Shown here: positions 1-14,998 of the stretch, piece by piece | Position numbering within the stretch: position 1 is the first letter of the stretch | Layout: the number at the start of each line of letters is the position of its first letter | IMG/VR virus record: IMGVR_UViG_3300048587_001103 | Span: 1 to 42,021 of that record | From: a virus | Length of the DNA: 42,021 bases | Strand: one strand, 5' to 3' | The notes under the pieces: generated by a model | Told to the model about the DNA's origin: nothing | Databases searched by the model: none | The model's input: only the letters and a program-made list of their open reading frames with translations | Position numbers and translations under genes: made by a program

Positions 1-36
1 GAAGTGTACTGAGCGTTGGCTCGAAGGAGACGACAG

Positions 37-393
37 ATGACGCAGAACGGAAACAACTCAAGCCAGCCAACAAGGCCGGCCTTCTTGCCAGCGAACGCCT
101 CATGGCAGTCTGCCGGGGAAGTCGAGGGGTGGATGTATACGCTCTGCGACCCCTACGGCGAAAGGTACGTGTTTTTCCTGTGGAGCGACGGAGGCGGCTA
201 CGCCGTAAGTCTTGTTGATCCGCCTCTAGAGCGGGACCCGAGTGCAACTGAGCTGAAGATCCAGCCTGACGGACGCCTTGGACCGTTCGCCCCCGGTCAA
301 CCCATGACGTTCCTCACGGCTTTCCAGATGTCGATTGCATGGATGGCCTTCCGCTCGATAGACCAGCGGATGGTTTTTGCGGAGAGCGTGTGA
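37..393 (+). CDS. Hypothetical protein, first gene of the JAB-E1 operon
   Basis: 118 residues. The ATG at 37 is preferred over the upstream TTG at 16 because AAGGAG (24-29) sits at correct spacing. The N-terminus is Asn/Ser/Pro-rich and probably disordered; the rest reads as a compact alpha/beta domain with aromatic strands, a Pro-Pro pair near residue 66, a PDGRLGPF stretch, and a Trp-Met helix at the end. That layout is loosely like E2/RWD folds (strand, PP turn, xDGxL, helix), but the position where an E2 has its catalytic Cys is Gly/Pro, and the only Cys lies in the first strand. It is 35 bp upstream of the JAB-E1 gene and likely cotranscribed with it. Its function is unrecognised; an inactive E2-like partner or a modification target are guesses. 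Confidence 0.7.
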   Translation: MTQNGNNSSQPTRPAFLPANASWQSAGEVEGWMYTLCDPYGERYVFFLWSDGGGYAVSLVDPPLERDPSATELKIQPDGRLGPFAPGQPMTFLTAFQMSIAWMAFRSIDQRMVFAESV

Positions 394-428
394 TTACCAA
401 TTAAACTTCACCAAGACTGGAGCCCCGT

Positions 429-2366
429 ATGTTTACGATCATAGACGACGTTACGACTGCAATTGAACGCAAGCTCTTGGCTTTTCCGCCGGAACGGGGT
501 GGTGCGATGCTCGGGCTTCCTGGCCTGCTGGTCATCACCGCGTTCATCTACGACGAGGAAGCGGCCACAACCGGCGCGAGCTTTGTGCCATCGAAGCGGC
601 TGACCGCACAAGTCCGCGAGCATGAGCAAACCTCTGGCACCGAACTCAAAGGCATCATCCATACTCATCCCGACTCCTTCGACCGCCTTTCGGGGCCTGA
701 CCACCGAGCAGTGGCATGTGGCCTGGATGCCAATCCCCACCTCAGTACCTACCTCTGTCCGATAGGCACCCGCGTTCCTCGCTCCAAGGCGGTCCGCGAG
801 AACGAGCTGTGGCTGAAGGGTGGAAAGCTATCGTGGTTCATCGGCCGGCGCAAAAGACCGCACGGAATCAGCATCTCCGAAGTCACGGCCCGCATTCTGC
901 CAATCGGCAGTGACTCGCAGGGAGTGGCCGAGTACCTGGGTGTCGATTCGGTCGTTGATACAGGCGTGGTTGAACTTGAAGGCCGGCAATTTTTCGGCCG
1001 CCAGATCGTCCTGTCGGAGCGAATGGACCTCACTCTCCTCTTCGGCCTCGACTACCCAGTTTCGCCGCCGATCGCCTTCATCGGCCAGAACGACGGGCAG
1101 ACGATGCAACTTCCGCTGCATTGGCCCGTCGAACGTCCGCCGCAAGAGCGGCTTCCGGCGGCGCTCCGTCCGTACATCCACCGTACGCCCTCTGGCGGGC
1201 GCACCTATCGTTCTGCGTGGGGGCCGACCGCCAATCTGCCCCTCACAGAGGACGCCAAGATGGGTGCTTCCGCCAATTGGCCGTTGATCATGACCAATGC
1301 TGACACAACTTCTCTGGCAGCTACATTCCGTGATGAGTCTCTAGCCAGGACTCGTGGCCTGCTTCCGGCTAGCCTCGCCGAAAAGCGCGTGCTGATCACT
1401 GGCAACGGCACCGTCGGTACCTATGCCGCGGAGCAGCTCGTCCGCAGCGGAATCGCGCTGCTTGATTTGGTGGACCCGGAACGCGTCGAGCGTGCCAACC
1501 TGTCGAGGACCAGCTTTCGTGCCGCTGACGTGGGAGACCTAAAGGTCGTTGCGTTGGCCCGCAATCTACTCAACATCAATCCCTGCGCCAGCATCACGCA
1601 GCACGCAGTATCGATCCAGGACCTTGGCGTCGCCGGCCTCGACAATCTCGTCAAGGCTGCGGATCTGGTTTTCAATGCCGCCGATGATCCCTCCGCAACC
1701 AAGGCACTGGGGCGCTTTGCCTACGCCCGAGGAAAGCCGTTCGTCTCCGTAGGGTTGTTCGCTGGGGCACAGGGCGGCGAGGTCATCGTCAGCGTCCCCG
1801 AACGAACGCCCTGCCCCGAGTGCGCGACGCAGTTCCGTCGCGTGATGGAGCGAGAGGCGGGGCGAGTTAGCCAGCGCACCGACTATGGTACTGGCCGCCT
1901 CCAGGGTGAGGTCGCCCTTGGAGTTGATGTGCACCATGTCGCCTCGGCGGCGGTCAAGCTGGCCTTGTCGTTGATGATGCCAATCGACGCGAAGGGAGCG
2001 CTTCGCGATCTGGCTGAAGAGGCTGTGAGCGCCAAGACGCCGTACCTACTGATGGGGATGGTTCCGAACTACTGGTTCTTCCCAGCTCTCTTCCAAGATG
2101 TGCCGGGACAGCATGCTTATCAGGCCGTATGGGCAGAGGTCGAGGGCAATCCTGAATGCCCAATCTGCGGCAAGCATCGGGTCGACCCTCTGACGGTTCC
2201 GCTCAGATCACCATCGGCGGCGGCGTTCAAGAACGCGCTGGCCAATGTGCCTAGCACTGCACACGCCGCGCGCGAGGCTGCTCTTCGGGCGTACCGGGCC
2301 ATCGGCAACACAGGACCCCAAGATCGATCTCGCGAGAGCTCGGCACAGGAGGAACCACTTGCCTGA
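429..2366 (+). CDS. JAB deubiquitinase-like / E1-like (ThiF) fusion protein
   Basis: 645 residues; GGAG (419-422) precedes the ATG. The N-terminal domain (about 10-130) is a JAB/MPN metalloprotease: Glu22, then the full JAMM signature His78-x-His80-x7-Ser88-x2-Asp91. The C-terminal domain (about 315-590) is an E1/ThiF adenylation domain: glycine-rich GNGTVG (325-330), VDPERVERANLSR with Asn357 and Arg360, Lys372, Asp419-420, and a Zn site from CPEC (462-465) plus CPIC (577-580). The middle (about 135-310) has no Cys and contains an E2/RWD-like DYPVSPP segment (208-214). Known families join these activities in separate genes (CBASS Cap2/Cap3, Bil and Bub operons), where E1 activates a ubiquitin-like protein and JAB trims or removes it. 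No E1 transthiolation Cys is obvious in the crossover region. Joining both in one chain is the notable feature; an antiphage role is inference. Confidence 0.9.
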   Translation: MFTIIDDVTTAIERKLLAFPPERGGAMLGLPGLLVITAFIYDEEAATTGASFVPSKRLTAQVREHEQTSGTELKGIIHTHPDSFDRLSGPDHRAVACGLDANPHLSTYLCPIGTRVPRSKAVRENELWLKGGKLSWFIGRRKRPHGISISEVTARILPIGSDSQGVAEYLGVDSVVDTGVVELEGRQFFGRQIVLSERMDLTLLFGLDYPVSPPIAFIGQNDGQTMQLPLHWPVERPPQERLPAALRPYIHRTPSGGRTYRSAWGPTANLPLTEDAKMGASANWPLIMTNADTTSLAATFRDESLARTRGLLPASLAEKRVLITGNGTVGTYAAEQLVRSGIALLDLVDPERVERANLSRTSFRAADVGDLKVVALARNLLNINPCASITQHAVSIQDLGVAGLDNLVKAADLVFNAADDPSATKALGRFAYARGKPFVSVGLFAGAQGGEVIVSVPERTPCPECATQFRRVMEREAGRVSQRTDYGTGRLQGEVALGVDVHHVASAAVKLALSLMMPIDAKGALRDLAEEAVSAKTPYLLMGMVPNYWFFPALFQDVPGQHAYQAVWAEVEGNPECPICGKHRVDPLTVPLRSPSAAAFKNALANVPSTAHAAREAALRAYRAIGNTGPQDRSRESSAQEEPLA

Positions 2367-2541
2367 GAAGACGACAACCGAAAGACTCAGAGAGCAAGTT
2401 GGCAATACGAAGACGGAGCGCTGCTCGCGGTGTGGCAAGACGGTCCAGTGGACGTTTTGCAGGTCTACGCCGTTCTTCAGCCTGACATCAGAATTCTACT
2501 GGCGGTGTGAAGGAGGCCATCGGGTGTATGTGTACCGCTGA
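2359..2541 (+). CDS. Small zinc-ribbon protein coupled to the JAB-E1 gene
   Basis: 60 residues starting at TTG 2359. A perfect AGGAGG (2347-2352) lies six bases upstream, inside the end of the JAB-E1 gene, and the frames overlap by 8 bp, so translation is coupled. The sequence has a charged N-terminus, then Cys-x2-Cys (CSRCGK), a lone Cys about ten residues later, and a C-terminal Cys-x3-His (CEGGH), enough ligands for one zinc. No catalytic motif is seen. Length and coupling suggest an accessory or target subunit of the JAB-E1 enzyme; a C-terminal glycine for conjugation is absent (it ends in VYVYR), so it does not look like a processed ubiquitin-like tag. Function unknown. Confidence 0.65.
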   Translation: MPEKTTTERLREQVGNTKTERCSRCGKTVQWTFCRSTPFFSLTSEFYWRCEGGHRVYVYR

Positions 2542-2767
2542 GGCCTGAACGGCCACGCGGGTGTGCCTCAATAGGGTCGATTCTGACGCCACATCGTTGA
2601 CGGTAGTAGGTGTTCCTCATTGGCAGACCAGGGCATCTGCTCCGAGGTGATCGCGAACCCTTCCTCGAACCTCGACCATGCCGAGACCAACCCAACCATT
2701 TCGGTCCCCATTTCTCGGCCGCAACCCGCGCTGCCTTACATCGTGGAATCTCTCCGATGCATCATTT

Positions 2768-3994
2768 ATGATTGGCCCGATCCGCCCCATTTATCACATT
2801 TCCAATTCCTTGAAATGCCACGTGTTTTCAGCCGCGCGGCCCGAGTGGATCGAAATCGATCCACGCGATTGTCCGGTCGACATCTCTATCGCCCGAAAGG
2901 TAGCTTTGCACATTCATAAGGAGGCCCGGCACAAGACTGTCCGTTGGCGTCGGCTGGGCAATCGCGAGCGCCAGCGGCGTGTAGACATGTCCCTCGACAT
3001 CGTGGCGCTTCAGCGTGCAGTCGGCAAGCAGGAGTTCAACACAGCTTCCAAATTTGCTCACTCATCATTTGCAATTGTGCGTCTTCTCAAGGATCTTCCG
3101 ACTGCTATAAGTTGGGTGAGAACCCAACCGATGCTCACGATGATTGTGCTGGCGCAAACGTGTGCATGGGATTCTGTGGTGGAGGCTGCGGCCAAGGCCA
3201 TTGTCACCGATCGCCGAGAAACGCTTCGAGCTTTTGGCTTTCCGCCGGAATGTGCCAGTGCCATGGCGCGAATTGGTCCTGAGATCGCGAGCATCAATCA
3301 TGTCGATGGCCTAAGGCGCGCGCTCCAGGACGCATCAATTCGCCGCAGTTTCTGTCATCACCGCGAGTTCTGCCACCCCGCACTTTCGATCTTCGCGGAT
3401 CCATCGCTGTTTCCCATGTTGACGCCAAACTTTCTTGCTTCACTGACGCCCGCGGACACTGATGTGGTGCGCCAAGTAGAGCTTATTTCGAAGGTCGTCC
3501 AGATCCTGGGTATTGAAACACCAATGCGCTTTGGAAGTAGAAATCGGTTGGCCGAGAGTTTCGACCGGTACTACGGAATCCTGGATGATCGTGCGCTACT
3601 GCGGAAGCATGGATTACGCCCATTTCCCACGTGCCCTGTACCAATGCCTTCGGACGTCCGTTTTATTGAGAGCGTGTCGTCGCTGCTCCGAACTGCAATG
3701 GTGTTCGAAAATTGCCTCTTTTCACTGTCCCGTGTACGTCAGATGGCGCGGGGAGCTCGAGCCGTGTTCGAGATCTGTCGCTCTGAATTTGCCCCGACTC
3801 TGTTTGAAATCGTGCGTCACTCCGATGGTTGGCAGCTCGGCGAGATCGCTGGCATGCCAGACGCTCGAACGCCAGATGATGCAGTGGTCCGATTCGTCTA
3901 CCGGCTCTGCCGAACAACTGGTATCGTAATCCGCCCCGCAAAGTTCGAGCAACTGGAGCTTTGGGAAGACGGGAACCCGGATATTCCGTTCTAG
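2768..3994 (+). CDS. Hypothetical alpha-helical protein
   Basis: About 408 residues from the ATG at 2768. An in-frame ATG at 2678 would add 30 residues that do not read like protein, and neither start has a clear Shine-Dalgarno. After an N-terminal part rich in His/Arg, the body is a run of amphipathic helices (for example around 3085-3500) with conserved-looking phrases RRETLRAFGFPPE and RRSFCHHREFCHPALSIF. The tail is acidic. The helical part faintly recalls PcfJ-type plasmid/phage proteins, but I would not name it on that. It ends 32 bp before a phosphoesterase gene on the same strand, so the two probably form one transcription unit. Codon use is less GC-biased than in the prophage. Confidence 0.7.
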   Translation: MIGPIRPIYHISNSLKCHVFSAARPEWIEIDPRDCPVDISIARKVALHIHKEARHKTVRWRRLGNRERQRRVDMSLDIVALQRAVGKQEFNTASKFAHSSFAIVRLLKDLPTAISWVRTQPMLTMIVLAQTCAWDSVVEAAAKAIVTDRRETLRAFGFPPECASAMARIGPEIASINHVDGLRRALQDASIRRSFCHHREFCHPALSIFADPSLFPMLTPNFLASLTPADTDVVRQVELISKVVQILGIETPMRFGSRNRLAESFDRYYGILDDRALLRKHGLRPFPTCPVPMPSDVRFIESVSSLLRTAMVFENCLFSLSRVRQMARGARAVFEICRSEFAPTLFEIVRHSDGWQLGEIAGMPDARTPDDAVVRFVYRLCRTTGIVIRPAKFEQLELWEDGNPDIPF

Positions 3995-4026
3995 AATTCT
4001 GAGCCATAGTTTACGTTGAGGCACCT

Positions 4027-4668
4027 ATGTTGATCATTGGCGATGTCCATCGGCAGTTTGATCTGTGGCAGGAACTGCTGCGCGAGCATGCGGATGCTTC
4101 AGGTTCCCTGCAACTGGGTGACATGGGTGTGTTCTCAAGCGCGGACGCCAAGGCGGTATGTCAAATGCCAACTATTCATAAGTTTATACGCGGCAACCAC
4201 GACAATCCACAAGCATGCCTTTCGTTGCCACATTATCTTGGTGATTTCGGATTTGTCCCCGAATGCTCACTTTTCTTCATCTCGGGGGGTATGTCGGTCG
4301 ACCGACATTTTCGAACTGTCGGCGTGGACTGGTGGGAGGATGAGGAATTGTCGTATGACGCACTCGGCAACGCGGCAGCCGCTTTCATCAGTTCGCGCCC
4401 GCGACTTGTGGTGTCTCATGAAGCGCCAGTCGTAGTGATGCGTCACATCATGGGCTGTTGGGCGCGGCCGTCACGGACCGCTACGGCGCTTCAATCGATG
4501 TGGGAAGCGCATCACCCGGATCTATGGGTGTTTGGGCATTGGCACCGATATGTTGATATCCAACTGCTGGACACCCGTTTCATCGGATTAGCGGACTTGC
4601 GGCCGCATGGAAAGGTCGATGAGATGACTCTTTGTGTTCGAGATCTGTGTTGGCCAGATGAGGCCTGA
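4027..4668 (+). CDS. Calcineurin-like metallophosphoesterase
   Basis: 213 residues. The metallophosphoesterase motifs appear in order: GDVH near residue 5 (metal-binding Asp and His), GDMG near 32 (Asp), GNHD near 57 (Asn, His), SHEAP near 139 (His) and GHWHR near 176 (two His). Such enzymes hydrolyse phosphomono- or diesters with two divalent metals; substrates range from proteins to cyclic nucleotides and nucleic acid, and nothing here fixes the substrate. No signal peptide, so cytoplasmic. It follows the 408-aa hypothetical gene by 32 bp and is the last gene before the converging phage late operon. A GAGG at the end of the gap precedes the ATG. Confidence 0.88.
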   Translation: MLIIGDVHRQFDLWQELLREHADASGSLQLGDMGVFSSADAKAVCQMPTIHKFIRGNHDNPQACLSLPHYLGDFGFVPECSLFFISGGMSVDRHFRTVGVDWWEDEELSYDALGNAAAAFISSRPRLVVSHEAPVVVMRHIMGCWARPSRTATALQSMWEAHHPDLWVFGHWHRYVDIQLLDTRFIGLADLRPHGKVDEMTLCVRDLCWPDEA

Positions 4669-4679
4669 GGTCTGAAAGA

Positions 4680-4717
4680 TTTAACAACACCCCGCCAGCC
4701 GTGAGGCATAGCGGGGC
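4680..4717 (-). terminator. Terminator hairpin of the phage late operon
   Basis: Read on the minus strand, a GC-rich stem GCCCCGC/GCGGGGT (4711-4717 with 4689-4695, one G-U pair) with a 15-nt loop is followed by TGTTGTTAA. It lies just past the last late gene (ends 4747) and between converging transcription units, so it could stop both. The T-tract is imperfect. Confidence 0.5.
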
Positions 4718-4746
4718 GCTTCCGGGGGCTGGGTTGTGCCGTCATT

Positions 4747-5859
4747 TTACCCGCTGTACTCCCAGCACCAACCCGGGATGACGCGTGGGAACGCGCCCGT
4801 GCCGCCGTACCAGCCGTCGGCGATGTCCCAGGTGACGGTGCCGGGGAAGATTTGCACCCGCGACAGCCAGCCCTGGTAGGTAACCGTCGAGCCGGATTGG
4901 ATGAACCGCGTGATGTACGTGTCGCCGGTGCCACCCAGCGGCATCTTGGTGTTGATGGCGTTCCACGGCACCCAGCTCTCGTTGTAGATGGTAGGGTCCG
5001 ACGCGCTCATGTGATAGAAGAAGCTGCGGAACGGCTGATAGGCGTTGGCGCGGACGATGATGTCGTCGCTCAGCGGCGACTTGGACACCTTCTGCCAGTA
5101 GCGTGAGGTGCTGCTGTTGAAGAAGTTGGACGTGGAGCCCTGGCCGAAGCTGGTGGTCCAGAGCTGCGTGCCGGTGGGTCCGATGGACGTGATGATTGGC
5201 TGGTCGAAGGCACGGTTGCCGCTGACGACGGTGTTGAGCCCGACGACCAGGGTCCTGCCCAGCGAGTCGGTGGCCAGTTCGCCGGGTTGACTGGTACGCG
5301 TGCTGGCGGTCCACAGTTGGGCGGGGTTCTGACCCACGAGGCCGTAGCTGCGGACGACGTCGATGGTGCCGGCCTCGTTGCCGACCGACATGGTGCGGTT
5401 GAGGGCGGGATAGCGCCCGGCGGCCTGGGCTGTGGTGGTCCACCAGCGCGTGGTGTGGACCTGATTGCCGTCGGCGTTGTACTCGAACCCGGCGAACACG
5501 CGGCCGTTCTGGGTCACGATGAGCAGATTCGTCCTGGGGATGGCGATGTCCCAGACGACGGAGCGCGTGGCCACGTCCATCCTCAGCAGCCGGAAGTTCG
5601 TCACTGTGGCGTCCTGCCGCAGGCAGTAGAGCCGACCCATGGCGTCAATGCCGACTCCGGTGACCGCCGCGACCGGCGTGGCGAAGGTCGTGTCCCACAG
5701 GATGGTGCCGGTGTCGGCGTTGATGGCACCTATGCCCAGGACGCCCGCAGCGCGGGTGTGCGCGAAGTAGAGGGTGCGGTTGATGCCGATGTAAGACCGC
5801 GCCCCTAGCGGTGACTGCACCCACGCGCCGAGGTTCGATTGCTGGGGAACCAGGGGCAT
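4747..5859 (-). CDS. Beta-propeller (PQQ-like repeat) virion/tail protein
   Basis: 370 residues. The start at 5859 is chosen because AGGAGGAGG stands just upstream and the ATG overlaps the previous stop as TGATG; a longer frame to 5919 exists but would overlap that gene. The sequence is built of repeated beta-blade phrases: ALNADTG-type turns, ILWDTTF, VVWDIAI, QLWTTSF, VTWDIAD, each followed by GIDAMGRLY- or ATDSLGRTL-like segments, as in PQQ/WD-type propellers. Being the last gene of the tail cluster it may be a distal tail or receptor-binding protein; that role is inferred from position. No signal peptide. Confidence 0.7.
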   Translation of the reverse strand: MPLVPQQSNLGAWVQSPLGARSYIGINRTLYFAHTRAAGVLGIGAINADTGTILWDTTFATPVAAVTGVGIDAMGRLYCLRQDATVTNFRLLRMDVATRSVVWDIAIPRTNLLIVTQNGRVFAGFEYNADGNQVHTTRWWTTTAQAAGRYPALNRTMSVGNEAGTIDVVRSYGLVGQNPAQLWTASTRTSQPGELATDSLGRTLVVGLNTVVSGNRAFDQPIITSIGPTGTQLWTTSFGQGSTSNFFNSSTSRYWQKVSKSPLSDDIIVRANAYQPFRSFFYHMSASDPTIYNESWVPWNAINTKMPLGGTGDTYITRFIQSGSTVTYQGWLSRVQIFPGTVTWDIADGWYGGTGAFPRVIPGWCWEYSG

Positions 5860-6800
5860 CAGGCCTCCTCCTGCCGCAGTTCCGCCCAGGCGCAGCCAAC
5901 GCGGTTCAGGTCGAGCCACGCCACCGCCTCGTTGCCCGGCCCCGGAAGGGTCACACCCGTGACGGCGGGCGCGGCCTCGATGACCTGGTTGACGGCGTGC
6001 TTGGGGTTGACGACCCAGCGCTCAGACCCGCCGTTCACGTCGATGGTCTGCACATCCACCGCGGTGAAGCTGGTCACGCTGGCGTAGTACCGCTGCAACA
6101 GCGTCAGGTCGTGGCGGAGGCTTTCCCACTTGGCGACGTAGATGTCAGACGCGCCCTCGGTGGCCAAGGCGGCGTCCCAGGTCCGGCAGCGGAGGTAGTC
6201 CGCAAAGACCTCCTTGATCCGCATGGGTTGAGTCGAACTGCCCACACTGCCGAAGCGAATCACGGCGAGGTTCGTGGGCTCGGGGAGTGGGTTTCCGGGG
6301 GCACCACTGTTCTCAATCCAGATCAGCTCGACGGGTCCGGAGGTGGTGGCGGCCAGGTACGCCGGGCCCGTGGCGTCTGCGGCCAATGCCGCATGGGTGG
6401 GGTTCAGGATGTTCGTGGGGTTGAGCACCCGGGCCGTGGTGATGCCGCTGAGCGCGACCTTGCCGATGGCTCCGGCGGCGATGGGTTCCACCGCGACCAC
6501 GAACCGCTGGGCATGGTCAGCCACCGTGGGCGCGACCAACGTCAGCACGACCGGCGAGCCGAACGTGTCGCCCTGGTCCACGGGCAGGAACACCAGGCCG
6601 GCCACGCCTGCGACGGACCACCGAGCCAGGTCGGCACCGCCGTCGTTGCGGCCGTAAATCAGGTCGTCCTTGACCTGCCGACCTGCACCTCCCGCGTTCA
6701 GCCGTTCCTGCTGGTACGCCTGCGCCATCTCGCGCACGGCATTCCACTCGGCCGCGCGGAAGGCTAGGCGATCACCGGGTTGGACACGGCGGATGCTCAT
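5859..6800 (-). CDS. Distal tail protein, hypothetical
   Basis: 313 residues. The N-terminus, RVQPGDRLAFRAAEWNAVREMA, is of a kind repeatedly found on planctomycete phage tail proteins as I recall them: a short adaptor helix followed by beta-rich domains. The middle holds a beta-rich region rich in Ala/Gly/Thr (about 75-185) and the end has ERWVVNPKHAVNQVIE. No enzymatic motif is visible. It sits between two other distal tail genes and its stop overlaps the next start (TGATG), so it is translated together with the propeller protein. Function as tail-tip structural protein is inference. Confidence 0.7.
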   Translation of the reverse strand: MSIRRVQPGDRLAFRAAEWNAVREMAQAYQQERLNAGGAGRQVKDDLIYGRNDGGADLARWSVAGVAGLVFLPVDQGDTFGSPVVLTLVAPTVADHAQRFVVAVEPIAAGAIGKVALSGITTARVLNPTNILNPTHAALAADATGPAYLAATTSGPVELIWIENSGAPGNPLPEPTNLAVIRFGSVGSSTQPMRIKEVFADYLRCRTWDAALATEGASDIYVAKWESLRHDLTLLQRYYASVTSFTAVDVQTIDVNGGSERWVVNPKHAVNQVIEAAPAVTGVTLPGPGNEAVAWLDLNRVGCAWAELRQEEA

Positions 6801-6807
6801 GGATTTG

Positions 6808-7632
6808 CTAAAGGTCCAGGAATGTCCAGTTGCCGTGGCGGTAGACGCGCTCCACGTAGACCGCGATCGGCCGCACGATGAGGCGTTTGGCCACGGCGTC
6901 CTCGGCCTTGGCGTAGTACGCCCAAAGGTACTCCCACCCGGCCTTGGCGATGTCGGTGATGGTGCCGATGGACAGGCCGGTCACGTTCGGTGAGGCGGCG
7001 AAGGCGTGAGTGATCTCCCAGGGCTGGCCGCTGCGCTTGGTGCCGGCCGCGCCCAGGTACAGTCCCTCACCGGCGGCAAGCGTGATGGATGCATCGTCGT
7101 CGGTACTGAACGTCACCGGCGCGCTGTTCACCGTGGCCGTCAGCCCGTACAGGTTGCCGATGTAGGTCTGGTCCACCGTCTGGCGGATGTCCACGATGTT
7201 GAACGAGAAGACCGGCACGTTGATGTCCACGCCCTGGGGCCCGTTCTCGTCCACGTTGATGGCCCCGCCGAAGTTGGGCGGCGCGAAGCTGGCACTCGCC
7301 GCCGGGTACGTCGCCACCGTCTGCAGCGACTGGGTGATGTGCTGCGTACCGCCGCGGGTCTCGAAGCTGAAGGACGTCGCTTCCTCCACCGCACCACTGC
7401 GCTCGCGGGGCGCGTAGATGGCGCGGCAGTGCCACAGACCGTTGGAGGTTTCCTCGACCTCGCAGGAGGAGCGATACAGCCTGAGCGGACCGATGTCGAT
7501 AGAGGATGGGCTTTCGTCCTCGACGACCTGGCGAGCCTCCACGGGACTGTCGGTGTCGAAGACGGTGTAGAGCCGCTCGGCACCTTTGTCCGAAAGCGAC
7601 CAGCCGAATCGGTCCTGGATCGTGGCGGGCAT
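6808..7632 (-). CDS. Tail protein downstream of tape measure, hypothetical
   Basis: 274 residues, beginning 14 bp after the tape measure stop with a GGAGAG ribosome site. The sequence is beta-rich, with ITQSLQTVATYP, VDINVPVFSFNIV and a C-terminal half resembling a baseplate hub or distal tail lobe (GEGLYLGAAGTK, WEITHAFAASPNVTGL, ending in VYRHGNWTFLDL). In siphoviruses the genes directly after the tape measure encode distal tail (Dit) and tail-associated proteins, so that is the likely class, but I recognise no signature residues. A single Cys occurs, so no zinc site. Confidence 0.7.
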   Translation of the reverse strand: MPATIQDRFGWSLSDKGAERLYTVFDTDSPVEARQVVEDESPSSIDIGPLRLYRSSCEVEETSNGLWHCRAIYAPRERSGAVEEATSFSFETRGGTQHITQSLQTVATYPAASASFAPPNFGGAINVDENGPQGVDINVPVFSFNIVDIRQTVDQTYIGNLYGLTATVNSAPVTFSTDDDASITLAAGEGLYLGAAGTKRSGQPWEITHAFAASPNVTGLSIGTITDIAKAGWEYLWAYYAKAEDAVAKRLIVRPIAVYVERVYRHGNWTFLDL

Positions 7633-7646
7633 GGCTCAACTCTCCA

Positions 7647-9644
7647 TCATTCGAAGGCCAAGCCACCGGCGCGGGCGGCGTCGGCCAGGCGCTTGGTGTG
7701 ATTGGCCGTCTGCTCGGTGGCAGCGGCGATGCGGTCCTGGGTGCGCGTACCCATGAGGCTTTGAATGGCGGCCGCGTTGAACGTGCCACGCACTTCGGTG
7801 CGATCGCCGACCGCCTCCAACGTGTCGCCCAGGCCGGCGAGGCGATTGAAGAGGTCGTCCAGTCCGCTGGGCTTGGTCGCGGGCGCAGCAGATTCGCTGT
7901 CGCGGCGCTTCTGCGCCGCCTCGTCCACGGCCGAGCGGTACTCCTTGCGCGCCGCCTCCAGCGCGGACATGGATTCATCGATCTGCTGCTGGTACTGCTG
8001 ACGTCGCTGGTCCTGCGCCGCCTGGGCAGCCTGGTCGAGGGCCTGCTTCTGGGCTTCGTACTCGCTGCCGATCTTGCCCAGGTCCTGCTGGCGCTGCTGC
8101 TCGCTCTGGTCCAGGGCGGTCTTGCGCTGCTGCTCGATCTGGCCCTGGTCCGCCTGCTCGTTGGTGCGGGCGATGTTGATCGCCATGTCCACGTCGTAGG
8201 ACTCGTCAAAGAACCCGCGCAGGCGATGCAGACCTTCCTCCACCTTGAGCTGTGCCTTGCGGAAGGCGGACTGCATGCCTGCCGTGAACTGCGTCCACCC
8301 CTTGGCCAGGAAGCTGAGCGTCTGCACCCACACCGCACGCAGGCCGTGCCAGGCGGCGGCCAGCGCCTTCACCGCGCCGTAGAACGCGTCCGTCGCGATG
8401 GAGAGGAAGGAATCCTTGAACCCCAGCCACAGACCCTGGATGTAGTGGATGCCACGCTGCCACTCGACCTTCAAGGCGAGCCACAGTACGCGTGCCGCCA
8501 GGGCAATGTCGCCAGCAGCCAGCGCGTCGGCGATGCCCTGGTAGGCGACCAAGGCCCGATCCTTGAGCGACTGGAATTGCTCCGTGAGCCACGCCAGCAC
8601 CTGACCGGCGACACCCATACTGTGCGCGATGTACGCACCCAGGGCCACGGCTCCGGCAATGACCAGACCCACCGGCGACAGCAGCGCCGCCAATGCCGTG
8701 CCCAGGAAGCCAAGGGCCGCACCCGCGCCCGTGATCACCGCGGCCACACCTCCGAATGCGGCGGCCAGGCCTTGGATGGCGTAGCCAATGCCCACCAGCG
8801 CTACGCCCGTGGCCACGCCGGCGACGGCGAGTTTCGTCACGCTGACGATCAGGTTGCGGTTGCGGTCGATCCACTGCACGGCCTGCACCACCACGCGCGT
8901 GATGGTCTCGGCCAGGCGCGTCAGGGTCGGTGCCAGCGCCTGGCCCACCGCGAAGGCGGCACGCTTGATCACCTTCCACATCACGTCCAACGTGTCGCCG
9001 AAGCGCTCGGCGTCCCGCGCCGCCTCGGTGCTGAGCGTCAGGCCCAGGGCCCGGGCCTGGTCCTGCAGGGCCTCGATCCCCTTGGCTCCGTCCTTCATGA
9101 GAGGAAGCAACTCGGCCCCGCCGCGGCCGAAGATCTCCATGGCGGTTGCCGCGCGCTGGGCAGGATCAGGGATCTGCGACAGCCGGTCGGCGATCACCTT
9201 GAACATCTGATCCGGGGTCAGCCCCTGGAGTTCGTTGACCGTGAGCCCCAGCGTGGAGAGCGCGTCCACCGCCGTCTGCGTGCCGTTGGCCGCTTCGACC
9301 ACAGTGCGCTGCATGCGCCTGACCCCGTTCTCGAACGACTCGAGGTTGGCCCCGCTCATCTCGGCGGCGAAGGTCAGCTCCGACAGGGTTTCGACCGCGA
9401 TGCCAGTGCGGTCACTAGTCTTGGCCATGGCATCGCCCATGCCGATGAACACCTTGGACGTGGCCAGCAAGGGCGCAGCCACGGCGGCACTGGCGGCGGT
9501 GAGCTTGCGGCCGATACCGACCACGCCCTCGCCGAAACCCTTCAGCTTGGCCTGAGCAGACTTCAGCCCGCGCACAAGCCGGTTGTCCGAGACCAACAGC
9601 TCGACGTAGGCGGACCCTGCCTTGATGCCGCGTGCGGAGACCAT
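7647..9644 (-). CDS. Tail tape measure protein
   Basis: 665 residues, the longest gene of the tail cluster, preceded by tube, chaperone and membrane genes as expected. The N-terminus (VKAGSAYVEL-like, LVRGLKSAQAKLKGFG) and the segment MAKTSDRTGIAVETLSEL (about 73-90) are characteristic of tape measure proteins of the TP901/lambda class. A hydrophobic membrane-prone stretch (about 265-345, many Ala/Gly/Val) precedes a long polar coiled coil rich in Gln, Glu and Lys (about 500-590, QQRKTALDQSEQQRQQ). The protein sets tail length and is ejected ahead of DNA. A length of 665 residues would predict a tail of roughly 100 nm by the usual 0.15 nm per residue rule. Confidence 0.92.
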   Translation of the reverse strand: MVSARGIKAGSAYVELLVSDNRLVRGLKSAQAKLKGFGEGVVGIGRKLTAASAAVAAPLLATSKVFIGMGDAMAKTSDRTGIAVETLSELTFAAEMSGANLESFENGVRRMQRTVVEAANGTQTAVDALSTLGLTVNELQGLTPDQMFKVIADRLSQIPDPAQRAATAMEIFGRGGAELLPLMKDGAKGIEALQDQARALGLTLSTEAARDAERFGDTLDVMWKVIKRAAFAVGQALAPTLTRLAETITRVVVQAVQWIDRNRNLIVSVTKLAVAGVATGVALVGIGYAIQGLAAAFGGVAAVITGAGAALGFLGTALAALLSPVGLVIAGAVALGAYIAHSMGVAGQVLAWLTEQFQSLKDRALVAYQGIADALAAGDIALAARVLWLALKVEWQRGIHYIQGLWLGFKDSFLSIATDAFYGAVKALAAAWHGLRAVWVQTLSFLAKGWTQFTAGMQSAFRKAQLKVEEGLHRLRGFFDESYDVDMAINIARTNEQADQGQIEQQRKTALDQSEQQRQQDLGKIGSEYEAQKQALDQAAQAAQDQRRQQYQQQIDESMSALEAARKEYRSAVDEAAQKRRDSESAAPATKPSGLDDLFNRLAGLGDTLEAVGDRTEVRGTFNAAAIQSLMGTRTQDRIAAATEQTANHTKRLADAARAGGLAFE

Positions 9645-9647
9645 GGC

Positions 9648-10007
9648 TCAACCTCCCTGCCCCCGGTTCCGGAGATAGCGACGGAACCGGGCCAGCGGCA
9701 CCCGCGTCTCGTGGCGCAGTTGCCCACGCGGGTCGAACCGCTCGAACACGGCGTACTCAAAACCCTCGGCCGCCAGGCACAGCGCCATGGCCCACCAATC
9801 CGCTGGCTCGATGCCCGCCCGGTTCGACGTGCTGTGCGGCAGGTGGTAGCCGGCAACCTCGGCCGCGTTGCCCTCGCGGCGGAACACGGTGCAGGACCGA
9901 TCGAACGGCAGATGCAGCGTGTGGTCGTAGTCGCCCGCCCCGATGCGCAGGCAGCCGCAGTCGCGACTGGCGTTCCACTGAATGGTGGCCCGGCGGTTCA
10001 GGGGCAT
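9648..10007 (-). CDS. Hypothetical protein preceding tape measure
   Basis: 119 residues, ending 3 bp before the tape measure start, so coupled. The sequence is mixed alpha/beta with WNASRDCGCLRIGAGDYDHTL near the N-terminus and a basic C-terminus (RVPLARFRRYLRNRG). Three Cys lie within 20 residues but do not form a recognisable zinc motif. No clear Shine-Dalgarno precedes the ATG; it follows a hairpin-containing gap. Position suggests a small tail assembly factor. Confidence 0.6.
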   Translation of the reverse strand: MPLNRRATIQWNASRDCGCLRIGAGDYDHTLHLPFDRSCTVFRREGNAAEVAGYHLPHSTSNRAGIEPADWWAMALCLAAEGFEYAVFERFDPRGQLRHETRVPLARFRRYLRNRGQGG

Positions 10008-10066
10008 GGAACGTACCCAGTAGTCGACCCGTGAGGCGATTGAAAACTTCCGGGGGAGGCAAAGCG

Positions 10067-10090
10067 CCGGCCGAGGTTTCCCTTGGCCGG
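10067..10090 (-). other. Hairpin with GAAA loop in the late operon
   Basis: On the minus strand CCGGCCAAGG-GAAA-CCTCGGCCGG forms a 10-bp stem (one A-C mismatch; a G-T pair on the other strand) closed by a GNRA tetraloop. It fills the 94-bp gap between the small membrane gene and the gene before tape measure. There is no T-run after it, so it fits an attenuator or RNA-processing/stability hairpin better than a strong terminator. Confidence 0.5.
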
Positions 10091-10101
10091 AGCGTGAGGG
10101 T

Positions 10102-10191
10102 TTAGAACAGTCGGATCAGTTCCTGAGCCAGCCACCAGCAGAACCAGGTTCCGAGGATGGCCAGCAGCACGAACGCGATCCGCACCGGCAA
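10102..10191 (-). CDS. Possible 29-aa single-TM peptide
   Basis: Short frame beginning TTG at 10191 (or GTG at 10185), with one nucleotide between it and the TGA of the preceding gene. Almost the whole peptide is one hydrophobic helix (RIAFVLLAILGTWFCWWL), flanked by Arg on the N side and acidic/basic residues on the C side. No Shine-Dalgarno is visible; translation would depend on reinitiation. A membrane peptide here could take part in lysis with the neighbouring lipoprotein/TM gene, or be spurious. Confidence 0.35.
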   Translation of the reverse strand: MPVRIAFVLLAILGTWFCWWLAQELIRLF

Positions 10192-10192
10192 C

Positions 10193-10618
10193 TCAGCGGC
10201 GAAAGAATTCGGCCACCTTCTGCGCGTGCGGGGCGACGGTCGCCTTGTCACCGATGGCGTTGGCCACCGCGGCGTGGCGGGCGATGCGCTGCCAGGCCGC
10301 GAAGAGCTGCACCTGCAGATCGGCGTAGCCGATCCAGTCGTGCACATCGATGGCCTGGTCGTGCTCGCCCACACTGACGGTGGCGATCAGGCTCCCGGGG
10401 GCGGGGCGGTCGGCCACGATGGGCTTGGTCGCCTCGATGGCCTTGGTCAGCTCGGCCAGGATGAGGGCTTCACCCTCGGCGCTGCCGGCGTCGGTCAGGT
10501 CGGTGTGCTGGGCGTCGCCGCAGTACAGGCCGACCACGACCATGTGCTTGCCCCCGGAAGCCACGCCCCCGGAATTGGGAGCTTCGGCGACAGGAGCTTC
10601 GAGAACGGTGTCGGTCAT
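10193..10618 (-). CDS. Hypothetical late protein
   Basis: 141 residues starting at the ATG at 10618, chosen for the TGGAGGA box just upstream; the frame is open to 10732 but the extension has no start with a ribosome site and overlaps the previous gene. The N-terminus is a Pro/Ala/Gly-rich tether; the body has HMVVVGLYCGD, an Ala-rich helix LILAELTKAIEATKP, and a C-terminal helix ending in AEFFRR. It lacks membrane segments. It is located between a lipoprotein/TM gene and a possible TM peptide, in the stretch of the operon where lysis or membrane genes cluster. Function unknown. Confidence 0.6.
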   Translation of the reverse strand: MTDTVLEAPVAEAPNSGGVASGGKHMVVVGLYCGDAQHTDLTDAGSAEGEALILAELTKAIEATKPIVADRPAPGSLIATVSVGEHDQAIDVHDWIGYADLQVQLFAAWQRIARHAAVANAIGDKATVAPHAQKVAEFFRR

Positions 10619-10676
10619 GATGAAATCCTCCAGAAAAGGAAGGTGATGGGGCAGGGAACACAGCGTCACCGGCGGC

Positions 10677-11237
10677 TCAAGACTGGATGACAGGCGGCGC
10701 TCGCGAGTCCGCGCCACTCGGCTTGTTGGCACGCAGCTTCACGATGTTGTCGATGCCGCTGGTGAGGTACAGGAGCGCCACGCCGCCGATCAGGGCCAGG
10801 AACAGCCAGCTGTACTGCTCGAACAGCGTGGGCAGCCACAGCAGCACCAGGCCCACACCCATGGCGGCGAGGCTCGCGCCGATCGGAATCACCGGCACCC
10901 ACGATCGCACCACCAAGAGGCCGGCCCCGAGCACGCACAGCGCCACGCCCGACCAGGTGATGATGCCGGACCGCTTCACCGCGGCGTGATCGATCGGCTG
11001 ACGAGCGCCGGTGGAAGCGTGGATGATCGGCACCATGGGCTCGGCCCGATCCTGTTGCAGCAGCGTCGCGGGCTCGACGGCCTTGCCGGGCTGCTCGACG
11101 ATCACGCGGCGGATCAGGCTGCGGCCGGGACCGGGGGCGTGGGTTTCGGTGACGATGCGGCCGGCTTGCACACAGCCCGAGCAACTCACCAGCGCCACCA
11201 CCACCGCCGCGATGATGAACCACGTGCTCAGCTTCAT
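10677..11237 (-). CDS. Lipoprotein-like multi-pass membrane protein
   Basis: 186 residues. The N-terminus is a signal peptide (Lys, then a hydrophobic run) leading to ALVSCSGC, which contains a lipobox-like LVSC, so the protein is probably lipid-anchored. A soluble part (about 25-95) follows, then three hydrophobic helices (about 97-112, 116-135, 142-162), and a polar C-terminus. No holin or spanin family is recognised, but a lipoprotein with membrane helices in a phage late operon suggests lysis, superinfection exclusion or membrane docking of the tail. Its ATG overlaps the stop of the GT frame (ATGA), so it is translated with the tail chaperones. Confidence 0.65.
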   Translation of the reverse strand: MKLSTWFIIAAVVVALVSCSGCVQAGRIVTETHAPGPGRSLIRRVIVEQPGKAVEPATLLQQDRAEPMVPIIHASTGARQPIDHAAVKRSGIITWSGVALCVLGAGLLVVRSWVPVIPIGASLAAMGVGLVLLWLPTLFEQYSWLFLALIGGVALLYLTSGIDNIVKLRANKPSGADSRAPPVIQS

Positions 11238-11566
11238 GATTTGCTCCCTGGGGTGGGATGAGCCTTGACGAACACGTCCTTGAGCAGGCGAATGCTGCCG
11301 GGTAGCGATTCCGCCTCGGCCTGCTTCCGCTGCTCGAAGGGATCAAAGTCCGAAGGCTTGAAAGTCTTGGTTGAAGTCGAACTGGACTTGCCGCCCAGGG
11401 CCCGCGCGACGTTGGCGATCATGGCCAGCAGCGACGAGGTCCGGCCCCACGCTTCACGCTGGCGGGCTTCCGCCATCCAGACCAACTCGCGGAGGGTCAA
11501 CGGACCAGGGTCAACCGCGGCGATCCCGGCGAGCTCGGCGATGAATCGGGCGGCGTCGAGCCGTCG
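11234..11566 (-). CDS. Tail assembly chaperone T extension (GT by -1 frameshift)
   Basis: Coding sequence in the -1 frame relative to the G gene. Reading the -1 frame right after GAAAAC gives RRLDAARFIAELAGIAAVDP and then PLTLRELVWMAEARQREAW, which is typical of the T part of siphovirus G/GT tail chaperones, whereas the zero frame over the same stretch is a Pro/Ser-rich tail (STPPDSSPSSPGSP). The only independent start is a TTG at 11500 with no ribosome site, in the middle of the conserved block. So the functional product is most likely a G-T fusion that loads the tape measure. The extension from the shift is 110 residues; its C-terminus is basic and flexible. The stop overlaps the next start as ATGA. 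Confidence 0.75.
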   Translation of the reverse strand, partial: RRLDAARFIAELAGIAAVDPGPLTLRELVWMAEARQREAWGRTSSLLAMIANVARALGGKSSSTSTKTFKPSDFDPFEQRKQAEAESLPGSIRLLKDVFVKAHPTPGSKS

Positions 11567-12021
11567 TTTTCGAGATCGGCCATGGCTTGTTCCATCGCTC
11601 GATCGATCTGCGGGCTGTCCAGTCGGCGCTCCGCCAGGTCGATCACCCGGGCCTCCAAAGACCGCAGCTTGCGAAGCGCCTTGTCGAGCACGCGGCGCTT
11701 CGCCTGCGGGAAAAAATCCACCAGTTCCTCCAGCAGCGCCGTGGTGCCGGCGTCGATGGCGTCACCGGCCATCGACCTGCCGAAATCCTCGTCGCTGATG
11801 TTGCGGGTGTCCGCTTCCGGCTTGCACGCGGCGTACAGAATGTCGCAGAGCAGAATGGGATCGCTGCTCAACTTGCCCAGCAGCCCGCCCTCGCTCTGGT
11901 CGGAATCGCCATTCACCACGTCCAGCAGGTTCACGCCCGTGAGGCCCTTGACCCGCTTGATGGCGTTGACGTTGATGGCCACGGTCCAGGTGCGGCCCGC
12001 GTTGTCATGGAACGTCTTCAT
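11497..12021 (-). CDS. Tail assembly chaperone G
   Basis: 174 residues following the tail tube gene directly (stop/start overlap), the standard place for G. It begins MKTFHDNAGRTWTVAINVNA, as many siphovirus tail chaperones do, followed by helices (LLGKLSSDPILLCDILYAAC; FFPQAKRRVLDKALRKLRSL). The last 20 residues are Pro/Ser-rich, as expected where the zero frame runs past a frameshift site. G and its longer GT form coat the tape measure before tube polymerisation and are not in the finished virion. The last codon overlaps the TTG of the T frame. Confidence 0.82.
   Translation of the reverse strand: MKTFHDNAGRTWTVAINVNAIKRVKGLTGVNLLDVVNGDSDQSEGGLLGKLSSDPILLCDILYAACKPEADTRNISDEDFGRSMAGDAIDAGTTALLEELVDFFPQAKRRVLDKALRKLRSLEARVIDLAERRLDSPQIDRAMEQAMADLENDGSTPPDSSPSSPGSPRLTLVR
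11566..11571 (-). promoter_or_regulatory. Candidate -1 frameshift site of G/GT
   Basis: Minus-strand CTC GAA AAC GAC: the AAC codon can re-pair as AAA after a one-base backward slip. The P-site codon (GAA to CGA) re-pairs poorly, so the exact slip position is uncertain. The switch from Pro/Ser-rich zero frame to conserved T-like -1 frame occurs just after it. Confidence 0.5.
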
Positions 12022-12449
12022 CAGGGCGTACCTCCTTCAATCCACGCCGGGGCGCGGGTCGAGTACGTGGGTTTGACCGTCACGCTCACCGTCACCGCCT
12101 CTTCCAGCGGCTCGGCGCGGCTAAAATTGGTCACTGAAAAGTCGGCGTCCAAACCTTCGCCGTCTTCACCGTCGAGGATGGCCAGAGCGATGGGCGTGTT
12201 GTTGAAGTACGCGTTCTTCAGAGCGGTGAAGCCGGCGTCATCCGTATCCCAGACCATCTCGAACTCGACGGTGCCGCTCTTGAGCGTGGCGACGATGGCA
12301 CGCCAGCCCTGGTTGGCACGGGTGGTCACGTCCGCCTCACCCTTTTCCAGGTTGAGCGTCAGGTCCCTGACGTTGCCCATCACGGTGTCAGCGGTCTGGC
12401 CGGCCGGACCGTGGTAGAGCTTGCATTCCGAACCCAGCTTGATGCCCAT
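12021..12449 (-). CDS. Major tail tube protein
   Basis: 142 residues. It opens with GIKLGSECKLYHG and includes VRDLTLNLEKGEADVTTRAN and a middle block ATLKSGTVEFEMVWDTDDAGF followed by ALKNAYFNNTPIALAILDG, the usual succession in lambda gpV-type/phage tail tube proteins. It polymerises in hexameric rings round the tape measure. The gene lies between the gp10-like tail completion gene and the G/GT chaperones, exactly as in lambda-like siphoviruses. Its stop overlaps the ATG of G. A C-terminal Ig-like decoration domain is absent. Confidence 0.85.
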   Translation of the reverse strand: MGIKLGSECKLYHGPAGQTADTVMGNVRDLTLNLEKGEADVTTRANQGWRAIVATLKSGTVEFEMVWDTDDAGFTALKNAYFNNTPIALAILDGEDGEGLDADFSVTNFSRAEPLEEAVTVSVTVKPTYSTRAPAWIEGGTP

Positions 12450-12463
12450 GACAATTCACTCCT

Positions 12464-12868
12464 TTAGCGCACCGATCCGGCCCAGAACTTGGGCAATCGA
12501 TCGAGGTTCTTTTCCAGTGCGGGTCCCATGAGCGGGCGCTTGGGGTACATCTGCTTCCGAAAGCGTCCGCCGAACTCGTGAGCCATGGCAGAGGGTCCGA
12601 CCAACTCGTGCGTGGGACCGATGACGGCCTTCTGCTTCGACTTCTCCACTGCGTACACGATGGCCCGCTTGAGCTGACCCTGCCGCGTGTGCGGCGGCGT
12701 TCCTGGCGTCGAGGGTCCCTTGCTCTTGCGGATGCTGCGCTTGGACGTGAGCCGGATCGCGCCGCCAGCATGGCCCAGGTTCTTGAAGGTGCTGCGATCG
12801 ACCGGGCGCTTCACGCGCTTAATGTCGATGCCCTCACGCGGCTTCAGCTTGACCTTCATCTCGACCAT
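12464..12868 (-). CDS. HK97 gp10-like tail completion protein
   Basis: 134 residues, strongly basic. The second half, GQLKRAIVYAVEKSKQKAVIGP followed by a segment with HEFGGRFRKQMYPKRPLMGPAL, matches the pattern of the HK97 gp10/minor tail (Z-like) family: a beta-hairpin, an E-x-GG turn, P-x-RPF/L-M-x-PA, then a final helix. These proteins cap the tail at the head-proximal end. Directly upstream of the tube gene, as expected. The ATG at 12868 has a second in-frame ATG three codons on; either could be used. Confidence 0.75.
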   Translation of the reverse strand: MVEMKVKLKPREGIDIKRVKRPVDRSTFKNLGHAGGAIRLTSKRSIRKSKGPSTPGTPPHTRQGQLKRAIVYAVEKSKQKAVIGPTHELVGPSAMAHEFGGRFRKQMYPKRPLMGPALEKNLDRLPKFWAGSVR

Positions 12869-12881
12869 GGCCGTCCCTTGA

Positions 12882-14465: not shown

Positions 14466-14482
14466 GACTGTGTCTCCGTTCG

Positions 14483-14734
14483 TTACTCGGGAATCTGCGT
14501 CCCGAGGTGTTGCTTCAGTAGCCGGGCGATGCGGGCGATCGCCTCATCTGTCGTGGTCGGCATCGTGCCGGACCAGGTGTCTGCCTCGCCTGCGGCGAAG
14601 CCTCCGATGGCCTGCCGCTCAACTTCAGTGATGACCTGGCCGCTTCCGGCGGCAGTCAGCTGGTCGAGCACACCCTTGTTCGGGTGCGTGTGGTTGGTGC
14701 CACCGCCTGTCGATCCACCGCCGTAGTAGCCCAT
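14483..14734 (-). CDS. Small virion protein with NHTHPNK motif
   Basis: 83 residues. The start MGYYGGGSTGGGTNHTHPNKGVLDQLT is a glycine tether followed by the H-x-H-x-N-x-x-LDxLT phrase that recurs in phage appendage and tail-fibre proteins, where the histidines can bind a metal at a trimer interface. The remainder is a short helix-rich part ending KQHLGTQIPE, similar in style to the end of the beta-helix protein downstream (AAHLGGSIPA), which suggests a shared C-terminal trimerisation or docking element. No enzyme motif. Confidence 0.65.
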   Translation of the reverse strand: MGYYGGGSTGGGTNHTHPNKGVLDQLTAAGSGQVITEVERQAIGGFAAGEADTWSGTMPTTTDEAIARIARLLKQHLGTQIPE

Positions 14735-14737
14735 GGT

Positions 14738-14998
14738 TCACCACGTCCCGCCCGTGAGCGTGACCAGATCGTTGGCCGCGCCCTTGACCTCGATGTTCGC
14801 GAGGTTCACCCGTTGAAAATCGTGCCATTCGCCGGGCACCCACGGCACCTCATGCGCCGGTTCCGCCTTGGTGCGGAACAGCACCGTCGCGGCATTGGTC
14901 GGCGGCGTGCTGATCGTCACCGAGGCCACCAGCTTGCTCGGCGACAGTGGCTGCCACGCCGTGGTCACGACCACCTTTCGGAGGATCACGTTGTTCAT
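14738..14998 (-). CDS. Small virion protein, hypothetical
   Basis: 86 residues from the ATG at 14998, which overlaps the stop of the previous gene (ATGA); the longer frame to 15025 is inside that gene and is not used. The sequence is an all-beta small domain (ILRKVVVTTAWQPLSP, VASVTISTPPTNAATVLFR, ANIEVKGAANDLVTLTGG). It sits between the tail terminator and the NHTHPNK protein. It may be a collar/decoration domain; nothing specific is recognised. Confidence 0.62.
   Translation of the reverse strand: MNNVILRKVVVTTAWQPLSPSKLVASVTISTPPTNAATVLFRTKAEPAHEVPWVPGEWHDFQRVNLANIEVKGAANDLVTLTGGTW

What the first reader, a model, noticed from the sequence alone, without database searches (positions are those of the whole stretch)
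37..2541. JAB protease and E1 enzyme in one chain, with a coupled zinc-ribbon partner
Seen: a complete JAMM signature (His78, His80, Ser88, Asp91) and a complete ThiF/E1 nucleotide site plus Zn site in one 645-aa protein, followed by an 8-bp overlapping 60-aa zinc-ribbon gene with perfect ribosome site. Known: in CBASS, Bil and Bub systems the activating and removing enzymes are separate genes. Inference: this operon is a compact variant of a ubiquitin-like defence system, with both steps in one enzyme and small partners (118 aa, 60 aa) as target or carrier. The ubiquitin-like protein itself is not visible.
Basis: partly seen in the sequence, partly recalled or inferred. Interest (0 to 1): 0.72.

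Follow-up and report, generated by a model that had tools for sequence, protein, structure and literature searches.

The report
Phage-borne JAB–E1 fusion enzyme operon
A temperate-phage contig carries one protein that joins a ubiquitin-removing protease (JAB) to a ubiquitin-activating enzyme (E1), with two small partner genes; fusions of this general kind have been described since 2006, but this one has an unusual long middle segment and partners that match no known family, so it is a new variant rather than a new kind of system.

Summary
Window 429-2366 encodes one 645-aa protein with an N-terminal JAB/JAMM domain (E22, H78, H80, S88, D91) and a C-terminal ThiF/E1 domain (GNGTVG, D349, N357, R360, K372, D419; C462/C465 and C577/C580). 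A 118-aa gene precedes it. A 60-aa CxxC...CxxxH gene overlaps its end by 8 bp behind an AGGAGG site. N-terminal JAB-E1 fusions were described in 2006 (polyUbl operons, type 6e), and I retrieved four: Ubl, E2_E, JAB-E1, DUF6527. The window copy is not demonstrably one of them. It has about 200 residues between JAB and E1 (56 in 6e), the small genes match neither Prok-E2_E nor DUF6527, and its E1 groups with CBASS Cap2-type E1s (83/85), although a 6e placement is not rejected (p-AU 0.25). One collinear relative was found, in a planctomycete genome, downstream of a WD40-bearing gene. Most likely it is a self-contained attach/detach enzyme for a small modifier whose gene lies beyond the contig's left end. 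The E1 lacks the MoeB-position crossover-loop cysteine, so transfer straight from the adenylate is inferred. A defence role is plausible but untested.

The parts
1..12 (+). possible last codons of an upstream gene (GAA GTG TAC TGA), 24 nt before the 118-aa gene; the contig begins here
   Evidence: sequence read directly; not testable because the contig ends
37..393 (+). 118-aa small protein of unknown family, with AAGGAG ribosome site; it sits where 6e operons have their E2_E gene
   Evidence: no family hit above cut-off; AF2 without alignment pLDDT 43, beta-beta-beta...alpha order
429..2366 (+). 645-aa JAB-linker-E1 fusion
429..764 (+). JAB/JAMM domain, residues 1-112: E22, H78, H80, S88, D91
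   Evidence: Prok-JAB E 6.8e-5; 30% identity over 112 aa to the planctomycete fusion, pairwise E 2e-11
765..1358 (+). middle segment, residues about 113-310, fold undetermined; holds a YPxxPP motif and no cysteine
   Evidence: no Pfam match incl. Prok-E2 and E2-E1mid families; AF2 pLDDT under 50; weak similarity to the pre-E1 part of two Cap2 proteins, Z 4.9 and 3.2
1359..2366 (+). E1/ThiF adenylation domain with two CxxC pairs (C462/C465, C577/C580) and C-terminal tail; no Cys in the crossover loop
   Evidence: ThiF E 1.5e-29; model and fold search; alignment
2359..2541 (+). 60-aa putative zinc-binding protein (C22xxC25, C50xxxH54), TTG start, AGGAGG site, overlaps the fusion gene by 8 bp
   Evidence: motif only, no family match above cut-off

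Best explanation
Window 37-2541 is the right-hand part of an operon carried at one end of a temperate-phage contig. Its central enzyme is a JAB-linker-E1 fusion that both activates and releases a small protein tag. The E1 domain adenylates the C-terminus of a modifier (inferred to be encoded just left of position 1, or by an unlinked gene). Because the crossover loop has no cysteine, the tag is inferred to pass straight from the acyl-adenylate to its acceptor, perhaps with the 118-aa protein as adaptor. The JAB domain then trims the precursor or cuts the conjugate. The 60-aa protein may position the substrate. Shown: domains, catalytic motifs, gene order, coupling of the last two genes, absence of the cysteine. 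Inferred: tag identity, chemistry of transfer, partner roles. Biological role, inferred: regulation of a host conflict or superinfection-immunity response.
For: Both domains have their active-site motifs complete. A planctomycete protein (L201 5710-7491) matches collinearly in JAB (pairwise 2e-11) and E1 (9e-12), with its own unaligned linker of about 120 aa, and follows a 1325-aa gene with WD40 repeats and a P-loop-like N-terminal sequence on the same strand. The E1 groups with E1s of Ubl-type conjugation and CBASS systems, 83/85, and its best PADLOC models are E1-E2 families. The crossover-loop Cys seen in MoeB is absent. Four 6e loci have the same gene order around a JAB-E1 fusion. The 60-aa gene is translationally coupled by position. 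GC is 60.8% for 1-2541 and 55.3% for 2542-4700, against 67.0% for the tail-side genes, as expected of acquired cargo.
Against: No modifier gene is visible. Neither small protein has a recognised family. The fold of the middle segment is unknown and could hold an activity that changes the mechanism. The JAB Pfam score is just under the cut-off. Many E1-like enzymes adenylate peptides or cofactors rather than protein tags. The one fusion relative has a different gene context, so partner conservation cannot be shown.
Confidence: 0.55

Rival explanations
1. It is a fast-diverged member of the known 6e polyUbl operons (multi-Ubl, E2_E, JAB-E1, DUF6527): the 118-aa gene is a degenerate E2_E, the 60-aa gene a shortened metal-binding protein, and the Ubl gene is cut off.
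For: Same order of small gene, JAB-E1, small metal-motif gene; N-terminal JAB; no MoeB-position crossover Cys in the 6e E1s either; E1 tree does not reject grouping with 6e, p-AU 0.249.
Against: 6e E1s form their own clade, 100/99, with the window copy outside it; linker about 200 aa against 56 aa; small proteins match neither Prok-E2_E nor DUF6527; JAB closer to a different JAB group.
Confidence: 0.25
2. The E1 domain makes a peptide or small-molecule product (MccB/PaaA-like), and JAB trims it: a phage-borne peptide-modification cassette rather than protein tagging.
For: MccB and PaaA are among the structural matches; no thioester Cys in the crossover loop.
Against: No precursor-peptide-like or transporter gene recognised in 1-4700; JAB domains of E1 operons are tied to Ubl systems (PMC1779556); the top E1 matches by sequence are Cap2 and Uba4.
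Confidence: 0.1
3. It belongs to sulfur-carrier metabolism (ThiF/MoeB with a JAB that matures the carrier).
For: ThiF/MoeB models match the E1 part.
Against: All score far below curated cut-offs (80.5 against 159 for the best); no rhodanese domain; no metabolic neighbours recognised; outside the MoeB clade in the tree.
Confidence: 0.04
4. About location only: the cluster is bacterial chromosome flanking a prophage, not phage cargo.
For: Sibling phage records carry serine-recombinase-like genes or unrelated genes at the same side of the tail genes; GC and third-position GC differ from the phage genes; 0 of 52 sibling records hold the fusion.
Against: The adjacent 4027-4668 gene matches a phage metallophosphoesterase family, 1e-20; no integrase or att site was identified between the cluster and the tail genes; the record is classed as viral.
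Confidence: 0.35

Closest known systems
Type 6e polyUbl operons (Iyer, Burroughs and Aravind 2006, PMC1779556); e.g. Methylocystis iwaonis plasmid L197, Pseudomonas fluvialis L058
   Same: N-terminal JAB fused to E1; small gene before and small metal-motif gene after; short overlapping genes; no MoeB-position crossover Cys
   Different: Linker about 200 aa instead of 56; no detectable Multi_ubiq, Prok-E2_E or DUF6527; E1 outside the 6e clade in the best tree (6e placement not rejected); JAB of another group
Planctomycete JAB-E1 fusion (L201 5710-7491)
   Same: Collinear JAB and E1 matches (30% and 25%), unaligned linker between them
   Different: Cluster with a WD40-bearing large gene; no 60-aa Zn gene seen; JAMM has HSHP instead of HTHP
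Type 6a / '6A-MBL' cap2_3 (NF058523)
   Same: E1 and JAB in one chain in a putative anti-phage system
   Different: Order E2-E1-JAB with a catalytic E2 and a metallo-beta-lactamase gene; window protein scores 60.9 against a cut-off of 320
CBASS type II Cap2/Cap3 (PMC10097602, PMC11153139)
   Same: E1 group nearest in the tree; a conjugate-and-release pair of activities
   Different: Cap2 carries an E2 and Cap3 is separate; no CD-NTase or SAVED gene in the visible cluster

Membership tests
6e polyUbl operon | JAB fused at the N-terminus of an E1 | tested here: met
6e polyUbl operon | Multi-ubiquitin (PF14452) gene in the operon | tested here: inconclusive
   no hit in the visible genes; contig ends 36 bp upstream of the first gene
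6e polyUbl operon | Inactive E2/RWD (Prok-E2_E PF14462) gene | tested here: not met
   118-aa protein: no PF14462 hit at E up to 1, best alignment Z 1.4 or less against four E2_E proteins; positive control hits E 1e-35 to 1e-45
6e polyUbl operon | Metal-binding protein with C-x3-C-x35-38-H-x2-C (DUF6527 PF20137) | tested here: not met
   60-aa protein has C-x2-C-x24-C-x3-H and no PF20137 hit; control L058 gene hits 8.6e-22
6e polyUbl operon | E1 within the 6e E1 clade | tested here: inconclusive
   outside it in the best tree, but p-AU 0.249 for holding them together
6a / 6A-MBL cap2_3 | E2-E1-JAB order, score above NF058523 cut-off, MBL partner | tested here: not met
   order is JAB-x-E1; 60.9 against 320 bits; no MBL among the neighbours tested
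CBASS type II | CD-NTase and SAVED-type effector beside E2-E1 and JAB | tested here: inconclusive
   absent from 1-4700, but the left side is cut; no E2 domain found
BilABCD / Bub | Separate Ubl, E2, JAB and E1 genes; E1 with an inactive adenylation half and a Cys domain | tested here: not met
   JAB and E1 are one chain; a single ThiF match, no crossover Cys; BilD anatomy taken from PMC11354881
ThiF/MoeB sulfur-carrier activation | Score above equivalog cut-offs; metabolic context | tested here: not met
   80.5 against 159, 70.8 against 275, 56.7 against 266 bits; no such neighbours

The most novel reading that the evidence does not exclude
The window protein and the planctomycete protein L201 define a separate, so far unnamed JAB-linker-E1 family. 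It arose independently of the 6e fusion from a different JAB group and a Cap2-side E1, attaches and removes a tag without an E1 thioester cysteine, and has been captured by a temperate phage with a new 118-aa/60-aa partner pair.
Probability: 0.4. Interest if true: 0.55.

Novelty: new variant of a known kind. Interest (0 to 1): 0.42.

Why it matters
If right, a single phage-carried enzyme both attaches and removes a protein tag, apparently without the E1 thioester step. That would give a compact, testable model of reversible protein tagging in bacteria and its use in phage-host conflict, and would show that JAB-E1 fusion happened more than once. If it is only a divergent 6e operon, it still adds a phage-borne case with unknown partner proteins.

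Tried and rejected
No close relatives came from single-protein scans of viral contigs or genome contigs, nor from JAB-motif scans or an E1-motif scan. Apart from the 6e proteins, the JAB-motif hits were mostly phage-tail-type JABs, stand-alone JABs or unrelated proteins. To steer the pattern picker I aligned the protein with short made-up motif variants; these were search aids only and not evidence. Genome searches of 385 and 369 genomes with the whole protein gave MoeB/ThiF-type E1 matches; searches of 398, 247 and 246 genomes with residues 1-310 gave one relative, and a search with that relative gave only itself. An early idea that the middle segment is an inactive E2 (YPVSPP, then GQTMQL where an active E2 of locus L009 has GQTLCL) was tested and not supported: Z under 2 against the prokaryotic E2 sequences tried, no Prok-E2 Pfam hit. 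An idea that it is the Cap2 E2-E1 linker has only weak support (Z 4.9 and 3.2 in two of eleven proteins; no PF20273 hit), and profile alignment to five Cap2 proteins did not extend past the E1. A hit of the 118-aa protein in a Brevundimonas phage has E 0.6 and no E1/JAB annotation nearby: rejected. Structure prediction of the 118-aa protein was too poor to search.

Full report
Observation. The window holds three + strand genes at its left end: 37-393 (118 aa), 429-2366 (645 aa) and 2359-2541 (60 aa, TTG start). The 645-aa protein matches ThiF at E 1.5e-29 (residues 315-516) and Prok-JAB at 6.8e-5 (13-94). The JAMM set is complete: E22, H78, H80, S88, D91. The E1 part has GNGTVG (325-330), D349, N357, R360, K372, D419 and two CxxC pairs, C462/C465 and C577/C580. 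The structure model is confident only for the E1 core (pLDDT about 90 for 312-444, under 50 for most of the rest, mean 52.7), and it matches Uba4, UBA5, Cap2 and MoeB. The 60-aa gene overlaps the fusion gene by 8 bp, with AGGAGG five bases before its TTG. Its C-x2-C-x24-C-x3-H pattern is the only basis for calling it a zinc protein.

Setting. The record is a linear IMG/VR contig of 42,021 bases. It carries a lambda-type terminase, a lambda-family portal, a major capsid protein, a tail tape measure, a primase-polymerase, a helicase and an S24 repressor, so it is a temperate tailed phage or prophage. The structural genes lie on the minus strand with third-position GC of about 0.87; the fusion gene has 0.69. 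GC is 60.8% for 1-2541, 55.3% for 2542-4700 and 67.0% for 4701-16000. Many contigs carry a terminase 65-87% identical to this one, but none of 52 such records holds the fusion; many are fragments, so this shows only that the cluster is not a core gene. In siblings the same side of the tail genes carries serine-recombinase-like genes or unrelated genes. Whether the cluster is phage cargo or flanking chromosome is therefore open. The neighbouring gene 4027-4668 matches a phage metallophosphoesterase family at 1e-20, which favours cargo.

What was known. Iyer and colleagues reported in 2006 that bacterial E1 enzymes in Ubl operons are typically fused to JAB at the N- or C-terminus (PMC1779556). 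Type 6a is E2-E1-JAB beside a metallo-beta-lactamase. Type 6e has a polyUbl, an inactive E2-like protein, JAB-E1 and a metal-binding protein. The NCBI family NF058523 (6A-MBL cap2_3) appears, by name, to cover the first. So a JAB-E1 fusion by itself is not new. Four 6e loci were retrieved: Pseudomonas fluvialis L058, a planctomycete L057, a Rhodospirillales genome L060/L076 and a Methylocystis iwaonis plasmid L197. Family searches identified Multi_ubiq, Prok-E2_E, ThiF, Prok-JAB and DUF6527 among them, and L197 is annotated in the order multiubiquitin, E2/UBC, ThiF, DUF6527.

Is the window copy a 6e operon? The gene order is alike: a small gene, the JAB-E1 gene, a small metal-motif gene, with the Ubl position falling off the contig. 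But the tested features do not match. The 118-aa protein has no Prok-E2_E hit and no better than Z 1.4 against four E2_E proteins; the 60-aa protein has no DUF6527 hit. The gap between the JAB and ThiF matches is about 200 residues, against 56 in L058. In an E1 tree of 23 sequences the 6e E1s form a clade at 100/99, while the window E1 falls with CBASS Cap2-type E1s and E1s of other JAB/E2/E1 loci at 83/85. Forcing it into 6e is not rejected (p-AU 0.249), so kinship is undecided. It works like a 6e enzyme at the level of domains; membership is not shown.

A relative. A search of 246 planctomycete-phylum genomes with residues 1-310 found one 605-aa open frame. The protein, L201 5710-7491, aligns to the window protein in JAB (30% over 112 aa, pairwise E 2e-11) and in E1 (25% over 186 columns, 9e-12), in the same order with about 120 unaligned residues between; Pfam confirms both domains. 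It follows a 1325-aa gene with WD40 repeats and a P-loop-like stretch near its N-terminus, on the same strand. The JAB resembles stand-alone JABs of Selenomonadales and Clostridia. The family is therefore real but rare in the genomes sampled.

Mechanism. Shown: JAB and E1 motifs complete in one chain; coupled small gene; no cysteine in the E1 crossover loop where MoeB has one. Inferred: the E1 adenylates the C-terminus of a small protein, transfer goes straight from the adenylate, and JAB processes or removes the tag. The 118-aa protein ends in ...FAESV, without the glycine usual for Ubls, so it is more likely an adaptor or target than the tag itself. The tag gene is best sought upstream; GAAGTGTACTGA at positions 1-12 could be the end of such a gene, but this cannot be tested. 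A conjugate-and-release cycle has a precedent in CBASS Cap2/Cap3 (PMC11153139). Ubl systems also occur in NTPase-based conflict systems with beta-propellers (PMC7159879), which fits the L201 context loosely.

What remains unknown. The fold of residues 113-310, the roles of the two small proteins, the tag, the target, the host and any defence activity. Two ideas about the middle segment, inactive E2 or Cap2-type linker, were tested and neither is established.

Verdict. Observation confirmed; interpretation partly supported; a new variant of a known kind, of moderate interest.

Noticed in passing
window 25546-26961 (-): 471-aa protein combining a ParB N-terminal domain with an N6/N4 DNA methylase domain; possible phage self-methylation.
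   Followed up: no
window 4027-4668 (+) and 32794-33792 (-): Two different calcineurin-like metallophosphoesterases in one phage contig, one beside the fusion cluster.
   Followed up: partly
window 2678-3994 (+): 438-aa frame between the cluster and the metallophosphoesterase, without family match above cut-off or plasmid relative, GC about 55%, no clear ribosome site at its first ATG.
   Followed up: partly
L195 2963-9333: Bradyrhizobium plasmid locus with separate JAB, 155-aa possibly E2-like, E1, a CD-NTase-like fragment (my reading), dsDNA nuclease and TIR genes; its E1 and that of viral contig L009 group together.
   Followed up: partly
L002 584-6308: Human-gut phage-labelled scaffold with a ThiF-type E1 followed by a 1423-aa frame that looks like an FtsK/EssC-type ATPase; a possible E1 link to secretion-type loci.
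   Followed up: no
L186 492-2051, L187 7956-9491: Large serine-recombinase-like genes just past the tail genes in related phage contigs, marking the likely attachment-site side in this phage group.
   Followed up: no
L201 8012-13528 (-): Planctomycete cluster of a P-loop/WD40 1325-aa protein, 216-aa and 238-aa proteins upstream of the JAB-E1 fusion; possible NTPase-based conflict system.
   Followed up: partly
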